Of a stretch of 64,000 nucleotides of DNA, positions 30,739 to 50,354 are shown in pieces. The notes below the pieces were generated by a model, which did no database searches, was not told the origin of the DNA, and saw only the letters and a program-made list of their open reading frames with translations. The stretch's first letter is position 1; each line of letters starts with the position of its first letter. A program made the translations under genes and the position numbers. This DNA comes from Polytrichum commune. Its lineage: Eukaryota; Streptophyta; Polytrichopsida; Polytrichales; Polytrichaceae. The stretch covers positions 14,322,001-14,386,000 of the forward strand of contig OX485809.1 of assembly GCA_950295325.1 (NCBI GenBank). Reading direction: 5' to 3'.

Positions 30739-32550
30739 GTGGGGGCTTTGAGAGGAGCACATGTTCCTACACCGGATGCACCAACAGATACAAAATATTG
30801 GAGACATGATAGTGCAACCAATTTAAGATGGACAATGACCCAACTTGATGTTGCATTGGATGCGTTTGATATAGAAACAAAAATTGTAATTGCAGCTCAT
30901 GACTTTGGTATTCCCGTAGCACCTTGTAAAACCACCATGTCGAGGAAAAGGGGAAACCCCACCACGTGAGGAAGAAGAACTTGTCATCTACAACAAGAGG
31001 ATGACCACCTTGGGTTATCCTATGACACTCCTCCAACTTTGTATGAAAGTTGCAAAGATGACCCAAGAGGGCTAATGCCCATGAAAAGTTTGAGGATTTT
31101 ATGTCAATCTCGAATTGGTATATAATCTACGTAAACACAACTCTCATTGTATGTGGAATGCGGATGAGAGCGGCGCTCACGCCGGCAATAATGGAGGAGT
31201 AAGGGTCTTGTTATCTAAGGGTGCACGACAATTCTACACTCAAATACCGGATGAAAGAGAGCATTTGTTTTGAGGTGCACCAATGTAAACAGTGCAAGCA
31301 TCCAAAAAGTTTACATTTTTAGATGTAAGCAATGTCGTTGGAACTACACGAAGGGTTGTGAGTCAGGAGCATGTATGGCCATGCAACCTAGTGCTTGGAT
31401 GATCGTCTTTTGTTTGATAATGGTTGGACCATTATATAGCATACACGCAAAAGATGGGTGAGAACATGTCAATGAAAAATTGTCACCTCTTGATCATGAA
31501 TGGGCGTGCAAGCCATGTGATTGTTGATGTTGTGGCTAAGGCGAGGGTTATAGGATTGGATCTCATTACACTCCCAAGTCACACATCGCATGCCTTGCAA
31601 CCCCATGATGTTTCATGTTTCAATAGCTTCAAGGCAACATTTTGTGCATGTAGTGACTCCTGGATCTTGACACATCAAGGTGTTGGAGTTTGGAAATAAA
31701 AACACATATTGTCTTGGGTGGCAAGAGCTATGAAGAAAACAATAACAATCGGAGAATATAAAGAAGGAATTCAAGGCATGTGGAATTTGGCCATCGGACA
31801 ACAATGCAATGGATGAAAAATGACACCCTTGGAAGGTAGTTCGTTGAGAGGAGCAAGAGGAGTTTGTGTGCATTGAGGAAGTTGAGGATATCAACGATGC
31901 ATGTGAAGGCATTGTGCCATGTCACTATTGTGTTGTTGAAGAAGAAGTGCCAATTTATGACATTTTGAACCTCGTCCTTATTGAAGAAAAACAGGGGAGT
32001 GCCATCACTCCATTTTTGACATTTCTTAGACATACTCCACCTACAAAGGAGACAACGACAAATCCAATCATTGATTATTCATGGCCATTGGTTATGACGA
32101 GCGATGAGTACATGGATACAATGGCAGAAAATGCAAGGAAGAAAGCACATGCCGAAAATGTGAGAGCTCGGAAGAAGAAGGAATTGGAGGCTACAAAGAA
32201 GCACCAAGAGGATAAAGTTCTACAAGAGGCGCAAAAGAAGGAAAGGGCGGACCAAAGAATCGCCAAAAGGAATTTGACAAGGCTTGGTCCGCTCAAAATT
32301 GTGTGGCAGTTGGGGATGCACTACACGAGAAAATCAAAGAGAATCCACCTATTGTACGTAACAAGGGGAGATATTGTGGCTATATGCCATTGGTGTGCAA
32401 GCACAACATGTCCATTGAAATTGAGAAGAAAAGAATGCTCAAATTGGGCCTATCAATTGAAGGGTACAACTTGATGGATATTCTTTGGGACTTCAAGGGC
32501 AATGCATGCCGTGGGCCATTAGGTGGTATAGAGTGCATTATTGTGCTGAT
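30739..32550 (+). pseudogene. Degenerate pogo/Tigger-type (Tc1-mariner superfamily) transposase
   Basis: Scattered frames read in family order. A Psq-type helix-turn-helix remnant (AAHDFGIPVAPCKTTMSRKR, 30893-30951) is followed by EEEELVIYNKRMTTLGYPMT and LLQLCMKVAKMTQE (about 30964-31070, Tc5/CENP-B-like N-terminal region). Next is HCMWNADESGAHAGNNGG (about 31147-31200), holding the first catalytic Asp of a DDE_1 domain. Then come LLIMNGRASHVIVDVV (31480-31530) and LPSHTSHALQPHDVSCF (31570-31620), and finally a lysine/glutamate-rich tail to 32550. Frame changes and stops separate the pieces. The second catalytic acid, normally Asp in the DGHASH motif, is Asn here. The element is therefore inactive. 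I could not find its terminal repeats. Confidence 0.75.
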
Positions 32551-46980: not shown

Positions 46981-47105
46981 ATAGGTTTCTTGGGAGAATG
47001 AGCATTGGTGGATACCATAATTGTAGGGGGCAGTTGAAGTTTGAGTAGGCAAAGTTGACCGCCTTTTTATTTCATGACCAAAACTTGATGTAGATTCGCA
47101 TAAAT

Positions 47106-49530
47106 ATGGTGTGGGCCCAAATCCAAAACCTCGGTACTGGAACCATACTAACACCACAAGAATTTAAATCCACATACACACATATACCTAAAACTATCAA
47201 AGAGGCCCTCCAACAAGCATCAACAATATTCCCCCCTACACCAATCACAAATCCCACACACATCACACAACAAGCACAACCACAAGGAGAAACCTCGGTG
47301 AACACCCCCCCCCCCCCCCCACTCAACCCATAGGATACTAGGTCAAGCAATTCAAACCATAATAAAGGAAAAAAACACCACCAAAAAAGACAAATGGGGA
47401 GCCCACGCGATACAAAAAATGTACCTATGCCAATGGCAAGCACCACAAGGAGCCATACAACAATGGCGAAAAGAAGACGAACTCCTACACCTGGACAACA
47501 TCTTCCTAGAACACAACATGCTATGCCTCACACAATTTTACACAAAACAAACCAAACTCAATACCACTCAAGAATATGCTAATTGCCTCAACCACATTCA
47601 ATCAAAGGATAACAAATTTATACATCCCCCCCTACAAATCACCAACCTAAAACTATCCACACAAGAATGTAACCCCGATAAAGATATCCAAACTAACCAA
47701 CCAACCATCCAAATACAAGCCTCGGAAGCTAATATCTATGACCAACAAGGAAACTACATGGCCACCATCACCACCGAAAGACTACAATGGTTATGGAACC
47801 AATTCTCCTACCACCGCCCCATACAAGCAACAACTTCCCTCCAACCCCCACCACAAGATTTCGAAACAGAAATGCTTTGGCTCATACAAAGATACATAAC
47901 CATACTCCCCAAGCGAAAACCAAAAACCATACAACCCAAAAACTTACACCACACATTACACCCGGCAATTATCACAACTTTAATAGAAACTTTTAAAATC
48001 ACACACTCATATTATTCATCCCCTCTCACATGCCCCATACAACTCACGCAATACCACTCCCCCCACAACCGGGATAAAATATTCGGCTCCATAGGACACG
48101 CGCAAACCTTCCGATGGAAAGGCATCGGCCTAGCATACCCCACGGACCACAACACTACCGTGGAAGCCATCCACTGGGCAAGAATGGCAGCCAAAGAAGA
48201 TACAAACACTGCCACCATCCTCATAATTAACCACAATGACTGGACCCCACAACAAATCCCACTTAGTGCCCATGGGGACATACATACAATTGCTACCATC
48301 CCCCCACATACCATACTATACAACCCCACACCAGAATGGCCAAAATACTACCAATACGTAGAACCATCACTCATATCAATAATATGTGTACATAACCAAA
48401 CCAACCCCACAACAACCTTACAAACCCCCCAAGAACTAGCACAAGTATTAGAACAAACCACTAACACACAAATAGACACCTTCCCCATACATCCCACGAC
48501 ACCGAATTACCACATCAAATACTCCAATACTTGGAAACATGCCCCCATAAACAACATACCCCCATCAAGAAATACCCCCCAAACACCACTCCCAACTAAA
48601 TATTACCGCCAACACCACCTCAAATACCCACCCCACCAATGCATATACACCGACGGATCATTCATCCCCCCAACTAAGAATTCCGAAGGACAAATAGAGG
48701 GTGACATCGCAGGTTCTGGAGTATACAGTCCCAACCAATTAGATATCCACATATCAGAACTAAACGCAATACTCATAGCCGTCAAAACCATACAAACTAC
48801 TCAAACCGACACACACATATTCACAGACAGTCTTAATAGCATATATCTGATTAGTAATCACATGCAACACCCAACTTCACAACACCACCATCCAGACAAA
48901 CTCCTCATAAAAGCCATAATCCACCAAATCTATTGGACACCGCACTTAATTCACATCCACAAAGTAAGGGCACATACGGGCATCATAGGAAACGAAATAG
49001 CGGACGCATTAGCCAATGAAGGAACAACCAAAGAAAAATCCACCCCCACACCACACATACATATAGCCCATGCCACACCCTATTGGCTAGCAAGTTGCCC
49101 AACTGCCACACGAGATGGAGCAATTAGAAACCTACACACATTCGTAACAAAGACACACGACTACCAAGAAGTTAGGATAGCCCAACATAAATACCCCTAC
49201 GTAGACAAATGGCTATCCAATGACCAAATAAATCAAAAGCTCTCCAACCACTTTTGGAAAAACAACAAAATCTCCGATGCTCAAATCACCCAAACACTAA
49301 AATTCCGTTACGCTCAATACATGGGCAATCACAGAAAAAACATTTTTTGGCCCCTCATATACCAAAACCCCAAATGTACACTATGCCACAAAAATGAAAG
49401 AGACACATGGCCACACCTACTATCAACATGCGAACACCCATACATGAAAGGACTAAGAATGGCCCGCCACAACAAAGCGGTACACCTCATCACCCAAACA
49501 TTACAAGCCAACAAACACACTAGATATTAA
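47106..49530 (+). CDS. Retroelement polyprotein C-terminal part: unassigned module, RNase H, zinc-binding tail
   Basis: The continuous frame is 703 codons from ATG 47419 to 49530. The same frame is open upstream from about 47321 (GQAIQTIIKEKN..KDKWGAH), and the frame 47106-47333 (QNLGTGTILTPQEFKSTYTH) would join it if the 16-base C tract at 47305-47320 differed in length. Residues 1-190 are uncharacterised. About 220-330 (FGSIGHAQTFRWKGIGLAYP, HWARMAAKEDTNTATILI) form a conserved-looking module I cannot name with confidence. An RNase H domain at about 410-540 shows all four acids: YTDGSF, SELNAI, FTDSLNS and HTGIIGNEIADALAN. A CTLCHKNERDTWPHLLSTC motif (C-x2-C-x8-H-x4-C) follows at about 654-672. 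RNase H plus this zinc motif is typical of the carboxy-terminal part of non-LTR retrotransposon proteins. The protein is Thr/Pro/His/Gln-rich with A- and C-ending codons, unlike the cellular genes here. Confidence 0.7.
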
Positions 49531-49535
49531 CCCTA

Positions 49536-49949
49536 ATGAATGCAGGTAATCTCAATAACAACAACCAAGATAACACCGTCCCCGATTGGCTCATAAACTG
49601 TACATGCACACAAACAAGATGCCAATGCCATGCCAAATTACGACTGGACATCCTCTGCATAATAGGGGCCCCGAACCACACACCTACACCTATAGCACCC
49701 TCACACTCACACACAGTACAATTCATTGAATTTACATACTGCCATGATAGATTCCCTGAACAAGCAATTGCACAAAAACACGCCAAATACGATCCACTAA
49801 TTAATGAGATAAGAAACAACGGATGGAAAACAAAGCCCCTCATCACTATCACGGCAGGGGTAAGAGGAGCCATACACGAACAATCCATCACCAAATTAAC
49901 GGACCTCAACATCCCAAAGACAAACATCAAAATGCCATTAAATACCTAA
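49536..49949 (+). CDS. Small second frame of the retroelement, restriction-like nuclease candidate
   Basis: The frame of 137 codons begins five bases after the stop of the RNase H frame, in another frame. It has a Cys-rich start (NCTCTQTRCQCHAK), then LDILCIIG, HTVQFIEFTYCHDRF, KYDPLINEIRNNGWK and TITAGVRGAIHEQS. An Asp followed by a strand with E-x-T, then a KYxPL..GW helix and a G-x-x-G turn, resembles PD-(D/E)XK-type nuclease folds attached to some retroelement proteins; this is inference from pattern. The frame ends LNT at 49949, but the adjacent frame continues with AIKYLTYLVLNKRKLDNK to about 50009, so a frameshift near 49925-49935 probably cut off the C-terminus. Alternatively it could be a translated part of the main polyprotein. 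Confidence 0.45.
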   Translation: MNAGNLNNNNQDNTVPDWLINCTCTQTRCQCHAKLRLDILCIIGAPNHTPTPIAPSHSHTVQFIEFTYCHDRFPEQAIAQKHAKYDPLINEIRNNGWKTKPLITITAGVRGAIHEQSITKLTDLNIPKTNIKMPLNT

Positions 49950-50354
49950 CATACCTCGTACTCAACAAAAGGAAACTAGATAATAAACAAACCACCATTA
50001 CACCCCCCTAATGAGGAAATATAATCTTAAAACCCATAGAGCCCACCTCCTAAAAGAGGCATAACCCCTCATGCGATACCACGACTAAGTTGGGGTAAAC
50101 ATTTGGGTAAGAGGCTCGCATTCATGCCGGTATAATGTACGGGCGTTGTTTTTTCTTTTCTTTCTTTGGTGTGGGCCCCAAACTGACACACTATATAAGA
50201 AATGTATTGTGGTGGCAAATTCTCATCATTCAAGCCTTGCCCTATTTTTGATTTGTTTTAAATTTTTCAGTATCCCAAGAAATGAAATGATAAATTTTAA
50301 TCATAAATCCACTCATGCAACATTCAAAATGAAACGAAATTGATTTTAAAGTAG

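What the first reader, a model, noticed from the sequence alone, without database searches (positions are those of the whole stretch)
47100..50160. Retroelement 3' module with RNase H, an unassigned module and a separate nuclease-like frame
A 703-codon frame survives intact in otherwise decayed DNA. It has a full RNase H acid set and a C-x2-C-x8-H-x4-C motif, preceded by roughly 400 residues, including FGSIGHAQTFRWKGIGLAYP, that fit no reverse-transcriptase motif I know. A second small frame follows that looks like a PD-(D/E)XK nuclease. Non-LTR elements usually carry either an AP endonuclease upstream or a restriction-like nuclease in the same polyprotein; here the nuclease-like part sits in its own frame. 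The unassigned module may be a poorly described domain of plant or algal retroelements.
Basis: partly seen in the sequence, partly recalled or inferred. Interest (0 to 1): 0.75.

Follow-up and report, generated by a model that had tools for sequence, protein, structure and literature searches.

The report
LINE with cap-methyltransferase-like domain
The sequence is a broken copy of an abundant jumping gene whose long copies carry two kinds of DNA-cutting enzyme plus a domain borrowed from an RNA cap-methylating enzyme; its catalytic amino acid is replaced in nearly all copies that could be read, so the domain probably binds something rather than modifying it.

Summary
Window 47119-50166 is a 5'-truncated LINE copy flanked by a 12-bp target-site duplication. 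The "separate nuclease frame" is a frameshift artefact: 42 of 45 paired places have both parts in one reading frame. Copies with long open frames encode APE endonuclease - RT - "unassigned module" - RNase H - CCHC knuckle - restriction-like endonuclease (RLE; by ordered motifs), with a 2A-like peptide upstream. Both endonucleases in one protein match the published Dualen/RandI description. The module matches Pfam PF12237 in 14 of 14 members, six of them not chosen by that family; in the PDB its profile finds only PCIF1/CAPAM, the cap-adjacent m6Am methyltransferase. PCIF1's catalytic NPPF is not kept: of 630 genome-wide pattern matches the Asn position is His/Tyr in 539, Phe in 72, Asn in 2, both in broken copies. 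The module is nevertheless under purifying selection (dN/dS 0.09-0.20). I read it as a pseudo-methyltransferase kept as an RNA-binding part; binding is inferred. The 3' UTR has a covarying RNA structure. My searches found no report of a PCIF1-like domain in a LINE, but the library is partial and no Dualen sequence could be compared.

The parts
47107..47118 (.). left copy of the 12-bp target-site duplication TGGTGTGGGCCC
   Evidence: exact repeat at both edges of the homology to other copies
47119..50166 (+). 5'-truncated LINE copy (3' part of ORF2 plus 3' UTR)
   Evidence: blastn homology to held copies starts at 47116-47118 and ends at 50163-50173 in the longest hits
47119..47418 (+). remnant of the linker after the RT domain, readable in another frame; frame broken further on
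   Evidence: translation in the third frame resembles the linker of L010 by eye; blastn homology
47419..49530 (+). 703-codon frame: linker, CAPAM-like module, RNase H, tether, CCHC knuckle and RH motif
47731..48453 (+). PCIF1/CAPAM methyltransferase-like module (PF12237 match at about 47848-48114)
   Evidence: Pfam E 4.5e-8 in the frame, 1.2e-8 for the module alone; 14 of 14 family members match; the profile matches only PCIF1 in the PDB
48127..48141 (+). G-L-A-Y-P, the stretch aligned with the catalytic NPPF loop of PCIF1; Asn position is Tyr
   Evidence: alignment; position; genome-wide tally
48640..49023 (+). RNase H domain with its D-E-D-H-D set
   Evidence: PF00075 E 8e-12 at residues 408-535; motifs located
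49375..49431 (+). zinc knuckle C-x2-C-x9-H-x4-C that precedes the RLE
   Evidence: its C, C, H, C invariant in alignment A2 of six copies
49465..49473 (+). RHN, start of the RLE (RH motif of R2-type RLEs)
49536..49949 (+). frame-shifted RLE catalytic part; this copy has L-D where the six long copies have P-D, then E in IEFTY, KHAKY (K-x2-K-Y) and GWK
   Evidence: motif meaning from PMC5678591 passages
50039..50146 (+). structured 3' UTR RNA (five helices, 33 pairs, 12 with changes on both sides)
50147..50166 (+). T/C-rich 3' tail (TTTCTTTTCTTT type)
50167..50178 (.). right copy of the target-site duplication

Best explanation
The window holds a dead, 5'-truncated copy of a multi-copy dual-endonuclease LINE of the Dualen/RandI type, in what is probably a moss. 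The long copies encode ORF1, a 2A-like peptide that probably splits the product during translation, and a large ORF2 protein: APE endonuclease, reverse transcriptase, a PCIF1/CAPAM-derived domain, RNase H, zinc knuckle and RLE. Shown by sequence: the order of domains, the target-site duplication of the window copy, the conserved 3' RNA structure, the replaced catalytic Asn and the purifying selection on the module. Inferred: target-primed reverse transcription that starts at a nick made by one endonuclease, with the 3' hairpins as template signal, RNase H removing the template and the second endonuclease (RLE, as in R2) serving second-strand cleavage. Also inferred: the CAPAM-like domain is a pseudo-methyltransferase kept for RNA binding, most likely recognition of capped or element RNA in the RNP.
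For: Long open frames in L009 (2372 codons), L010 (2305) and L011 (2422), and in a second group found through PF12237: L017 (2919), L018 (2890, cut by the locus edge), L019 (2625), L020 (2663). Pfam finds RVT_1 (E 1.4e-32, 8e-32, 3.9e-27, 1.4e-29), PF12237 and RNase H in the four ORFs scanned (L009, L010, L017, L018); an APE family in three of the four, not in L018, but the QE, GDFN and SDH motifs are invariant in six copies, L018 among them. RLE motifs RH, PD, E, K-x2-K-Y and GW are invariant in the same six copies; the only two PDB hits are R2 chains (name recalled), E 0.74. Module: PF12237 in 14 of 14 members, of which window, L002, L006, L009, L010 and L011 were not found through that family; PDB hits up to E 10 are only PCIF1, 6.1e-5 and 0.0079; PF12237 is stated to be a CAPAM-like methyltransferase, not a WW domain (PMC7641849, passage). 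NPPF Asn lost: 539 H/Y, 72 F, 2 N, 17 other of 630 pattern matches; both N copies are broken inside the module. NPPF mutants of PCIF1 are reported inactive (PMC10544176, passage). dN/dS of the module 0.09-0.20 in five within-group pairs. 2A-like D-x-x-x-NPGP in 8 of 8 long loci read. 3' UTR: 12 pairs changed on both sides, 0 of 500 shuffles as high.
Against: The RLE match to a solved structure is not significant by itself (E 0.74, and it covers only the knuckle-to-RHN part), and Pfam has no hit in the C-terminal 270 residues of the two copies scanned. Both structure predictions, made from single sequences, failed (mean pLDDT 37.2 and 33.5), so neither fold was shown by structure. No Dualen sequence was available for an RT tree. 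RNA binding by the module is untested. PF12237 scores of L009 and L010 whole ORFs (27.4, 25.5 bits) are under the curated cut-off of 31.1, although the window frame (33.3) and L017/L018 (47.0, 41.6) exceed it. The module is somewhat less constrained than RNase H (0.05-0.16) and knuckle plus RLE (0.07-0.12) in the same pairs, and dS is near saturation in many pairs. The pattern matches were not each checked to be LINE modules. Asn could be functionally replaced by His. L010 has its 2A-like motif in a frame other than that of its ORF2.
Confidence: 0.72

Rival explanations
1. The CAPAM-like module is still an active methyltransferase with an altered catalytic loop (His/Tyr/Phe-Pro in place of Asn-Pro-Pro-Phe) and methylates the element RNA or the new DNA.
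For: The replacement is confined to His/Tyr/Phe rather than scattered (611 of 630 pattern matches), and the module is under purifying selection.
Against: NPPF mutants of PCIF1 are reported inactive (PMC10544176 passage); the second Pro of NPPF is also lost in most held rows (PP kept in 3 of 44, two of them the same place).
Confidence: 0.15
2. The module is a structural spacer between RT and RNase H with no binding role of its own.
For: It lies between RT and RNase H, a region that varies between LINE clades (general knowledge); it is a little less constrained than RNase H and RLE.
Against: 52 of 250 columns are invariant across 14 members that are as little as 39% identical to the window copy, and dN/dS is similar to that of the APE domain (0.07-0.17).
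Confidence: 0.15
3. One reading: the nuclease is a separate frame by design and the module is an undescribed domain.
For: The window copy alone shows two frames.
Against: 42 of 45 pairs are in the same reading frame, and 19 of 45 have the same open-frame length listed for both parts (counted by hand); PF12237 match.
Confidence: 0.02
4. The element belongs to another RLE clade (R2-like) or to an L1-like clade that gained a second endonuclease on its own, not to Dualen.
For: The RT profile scores highest with R2 proteins (118.6 bits) and lower with L1 (69.7). Dualen elements named in the passages I saw are from Chlamydomonas; the one held paper with all of Dualen, moss, retrotransposon and genome has Moss as an author's name.
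Against: APE plus RLE in one protein is the published hallmark of Dualen (PMC4640811, PMC3636483 passages); RNase H is also listed for Dualen/RandI.
Confidence: 0.2

Closest known systems
Dualen / RandI non-LTR retrotransposons (Chlamydomonas)
   Same: APE and RLE in one protein with RT and RNase H (here; published); a (CTTT)n 3' repeat is listed for SINEX-2_CR, whose tail is from RandI-2 (PMC3747384 table passage)
   Different: Host is probably a moss; has a CAPAM-like module and a 2A-like peptide; whether Chlamydomonas Dualen carries these could not be checked
PCIF1/CAPAM cap-adjacent m6Am methyltransferase (PF12237)
   Same: Sequence of the methyltransferase core, including FGSxG and the stretch around the catalytic loop
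   Different: Catalytic NPPF replaced by H/Y/F-P-x in nearly all readable copies; no WW family found in four ORFs; fused into a LINE polyprotein
R2 LINE restriction-like endonuclease
   Same: Zinc knuckle, RH, PD...E, K-x2-K-Y and G-W in order; RT closest to R2 in the PDB
   Different: Knuckle spacing x9 rather than x7-8; APE also present; no common target in seven of eight other 3' flanks read
DNMT-bearing LINEs and DIRS of Symbiodinium (de Mendoza 2018)
   Same: A methyltransferase captured by a retrotransposon and under purifying selection (PMC5890265 passages)
   Different: Cytosine DNA methyltransferases, in ORF1 for the LINEs; here an RNA cap methyltransferase-like domain in ORF2 without its catalytic motif

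Membership tests
Dualen/RandI | both APE and RLE endonucleases in one ORF | tested here: met
   APE by Pfam in L009, L010, L017 and not in L018, with motifs QE, GDFN and SDH invariant in six copies, L018 among them (motif names recalled); RLE by motif set only
Dualen/RandI | RNase H domain | tested here: met
   PF00075 in the four full ORFs scanned and in the window frame
Dualen/RandI | RT groups with Dualen in a tree | not testable with these tools
   No Dualen sequence held; the RT profile is nearest to R2, then L1, among PDB chains
Active PCIF1/CAPAM methyltransferase | PF12237 methyltransferase core | tested here: met
   14 of 14 members, best E 6.8e-14, eight of them chosen through PF12237 itself; only PCIF1 in the PDB
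Active PCIF1/CAPAM methyltransferase | catalytic NPPF loop | tested here: not met
   2 Asn of 630 pattern matches, both in broken copies
Active PCIF1/CAPAM methyltransferase | N-terminal WW domain | tested here: not met
   no WW family in Pfam scans of four full ORFs up to E 1
Active PCIF1/CAPAM methyltransferase | cap-binding helical domain | not tested
   no structure model of use
R2-type RLE | knuckle, RH, PD, D/E, K-x2-K-Y, GxW in order | tested here: met
   invariant columns of A2; definitions from PMC5678591 passages; here the last motif is GW rather than GxW and the knuckle spacing is x9 rather than x7-8
R2-type RLE | restriction-endonuclease-like fold | tested here: inconclusive
   single-sequence model, mean pLDDT 37.2; profile match to R2 E 0.74
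2A-like ribosome-skipping peptide | D-x-E-x-NPGP (recalled consensus) | tested here: inconclusive
   D-x-x-x-NPGP in 8 of 8 loci, but the strict form with E in only L011, L017 and L019 (3 of 8)

The most novel reading that the evidence does not exclude
A whole lineage of dual-endonuclease LINEs captured the mRNA cap methyltransferase fold, lost its catalysis, and uses it as a cap or m6Am reader to select its own capped full-length RNA, a retrotransposon example of a pseudo-epitranscriptomic enzyme.
Probability: 0.3. Interest if true: 0.78.

Novelty: new variant of a known kind. Interest (0 to 1): 0.56.

Why it matters
LINEs are usually described with one endonuclease and a nondescript tether between RT and RNase H. 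Here the long copies read carry both endonucleases, and hundreds of places in the genome carry a domain derived from the enzyme that marks the first nucleotide of mRNAs, with catalysis apparently lost. If the domain reads the cap or the 5' end, it would give a direct handle on how a LINE protein selects its own RNA, an open question, and the long copies make it testable. It also suggests that dual-endonuclease LINEs, known to me from green algae, thrive in a land plant.

Tried and rejected
Both models were useless, so no fold search was run.

A distinct host PCIF1 gene was looked for with PF12237 in the own genome; of 697 candidates 150 were scored and listed. I opened 25 of these places and 25 of 25 match the LINE module profile. 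A host gene split by introns may have been missed.

Relatives of the module outside this genome: none confirmed in viral contigs (27 pattern stretches), prokaryote genomes (49 stretches) or phage records. No eukaryote collection was available.

Literature: PCIF1 with retrotransposon terms gave one review, seen in the listing only; PCIF1 with non-LTR retrotransposon gave 0; Dualen with methyltransferase gave one paper, where that word is in a reference; a wider search with adenine methyltransferase, LINE and PCIF1 gave 26 papers, 20 listed, of which one was looked into by passages. A 2016 BioEssays survey of eukaryotic adenine methylation that I recall as relevant is not held, so the link may already be in print. 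Polytrichum commune with LINE terms gave 0. A search on 2A-like sequences in LINEs was seen in the listing only. PMC5348765 (oomycete and plant retrotransposons) has no mention of Dualen or moss.

Rejected: strong target specificity. Of eight other independent 3' flanks (L002-L007, L010, L011) one, L003, begins with the same TGGTGTG as the window's duplication; the other seven share no site by eye. L008 is the same place as L010, and L009 was cut inside the ORF. A target-site duplication was looked for in the window copy only.

Full report
What is there. The two frames exist as described. The large open frame, 742 codons, is far beyond chance (shuffle mean 120, maximum 249 of 1000). DNA homology to held copies starts at 47116-47118 and ends at 50163-50173 in the longest hits, and a 12-bp exact repeat stands at 47107-47118 and 50167-50178. 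So this is one 5'-truncated insertion of 3,048 bases. The coding homology upstream of 47419 continues in another frame, so the ATG is not a start. The best held copy by DNA, L003, is 79% identical over 2,954 bases; a closer one by protein (89%) was not fetched.

Multi-copy family. A search of the own genome (408 Mb) with the large frame lists 63 places, the window itself at 100% and the others at 66-89% identity; the small frame lists 150 places, all that were scored. For 45 of the 63 places a partner small-frame match is listed; 42 of these 45 have both parts in one reading frame, and 3, one of them the window, do not (two of the 42 lie further apart than usual). In 19 of 45 the two calls list the same open-frame length (counted by hand). 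The separate nuclease frame is thus an artefact of a frameshift in the window copy.

Full layout. Copies L009, L010 and L011, relatives of the window element, and L017-L020 of a second group, found through PF12237, have open frames of 2305-2919 codons (L018 is cut by the locus edge; L011 lacks about 50 residues of the RT region). In L009, L010, L017 and L018 Pfam gives RVT_1, PF12237 and RNase H in that order, preceded by an APE family in all but L018; APE motifs are invariant in six copies including L018. The C-terminus has the zinc knuckle, RH, PD, E, K-x2-K-Y and GW invariant in six copies. PMC5678591 (passages) describes these as features of LINE RLEs, with the catalytic Lys in K-x2-K-Y. 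A profile search of the PDB returns two sequences, both of which I recall as R2 of Bombyx, but at E 0.74 and over the knuckle-to-RHN part only, so the RLE assignment rests on the ordered motifs. The window copy has L-D in place of P-D. The RT profile is nearest to R2 proteins (118.6 bits), then L1 (69.7). A 2A-like D-x-x-x-NPGP lies in 8 of 8 long loci read, with the strict E in 3 of 8; in L010 it is in another frame than ORF2, and in L017 one open frame runs from well upstream of it to the end of ORF2.

The unassigned module. Residues 144-232 of the frame match PF12237 (E 4.5e-8). Fourteen of 14 aligned family modules match it (best E 6.8e-14); eight of these were found through PF12237, so the independent count is six of six. 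The profile of the 14 finds two sequences in the PDB up to E 10, both PCIF1, at E 6.1e-5 and 0.0079. PMC7641849 (passage) says that PF12237 is not a WW domain but a CAPAM-like methyltransferase. In PCIF1 the NPPF loop is catalytic, and mutants of its Asn and Phe are reported inactive (PMC10544176, passage). Of 41 profile rows from distinct held places or pieces the Asn position is H in 26, Y in 7, F in 4, M in one frameshifted piece and a gap in 3 (44 rows with duplicates). Genome-wide, the DNA pattern for [K/R]-W-x-G-x-G-x-A-x-P has 630 matches (backward-read control 36); 539 have H or Y (control 0), 72 F (control 0), 2 N or D, both N, leaving 17 others, chance matches among them. The matches were not each checked. 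Both N copies match the module profile in two frames with stops inside. So the loss looks fixed in the lineage, not the decay of single copies. The module still evolves under constraint: dN/dS is 0.20, 0.13, 0.16 (first group), 0.11 and 0.09 (second group), like the APE domain (0.14, 0.13, 0.17, 0.07, 0.12) and a little weaker than RNase H (0.06, 0.09, 0.08, 0.05, 0.16) and knuckle plus RLE (0.07, 0.09, 0.12, 0.10, 0.10); the near-identical pair L018/L020 (0.29) is uninformative, between-group values are 0.24 and 0.35, and dS is often near saturation.

3' end. The 3' UTR of eight copies aligns and folds into five helices with 33 pairs, 12 of them with changes on both sides; none of 500 shuffles reaches any of the five observed measures and slid versions fall to 26-42% paired. 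The structure was derived from the same alignment, so the slide control leans in its favour. A T/C-rich tail follows. Seven of eight other independent 3' flanks share no site with the window by eye; L003's begins with the same TGGTGTG. This fits TPRT with structured template recognition.

Host. Seven contigs of 42-78 Mb make up nearly all of the assembly. The plastid psaB is nearest to PDB chains 8htu, 6l35 and 7ksq, which I recall as the moss Physcomitrium. Probably a moss; the species is not known to me.

How it works (inferred). Translation gives ORF1 and, after 2A skipping, the ORF2 protein. ORF2 binds the 3' hairpins, one endonuclease nicks the target, RT copies, RNase H removes RNA, and the other endonuclease serves the second strand. 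The CAPAM-derived module, with catalysis lost and sequence constrained, most likely binds RNA, perhaps the cap. None of these activities was tested.

Known and new. Both endonucleases plus RNase H is the published description of Dualen/RandI (PMC4640811 and PMC3636483, passages). My searches found no held paper reporting a PCIF1-like domain in a LINE, but the library is partial and a survey that I recall is not held. DNMT capture by Symbiodinium LINEs (PMC5890265, passages) is the nearest precedent that I saw.

Noticed in passing
L012 929-8155: Two 2A-like motifs (GDIQPNPGP and GDIHPNPGP) 154 residues apart in one open frame, as if the 5' part were duplicated.
   Followed up: no
window 48001-50000: The element's coding strand is extremely rich in A and C (GC skew -0.44, AT skew +0.39).
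   Followed up: no
L003: The locus holds pieces of two copies of the family on opposite strands, perhaps a nested insertion; its 3' flank begins with TGGTGTG like the window's duplication.
   Followed up: no
L011 167-1573 and L009 32-1186: ORF1 proteins (468 and 384 codons) have no Pfam match over a cut-off (best E 0.031).
   Followed up: partly
window 47305-47320: A run of 16 C near a frame break; could be a true expansion or an assembly error.
   Followed up: no
window 31866-32474: A 202-codon frame, the only other one of 180 or more codons in the window.
   Followed up: no
window 1-64000: No Rfam family reaches its gathering score in the window, the structured 3' UTR included.
   Followed up: no
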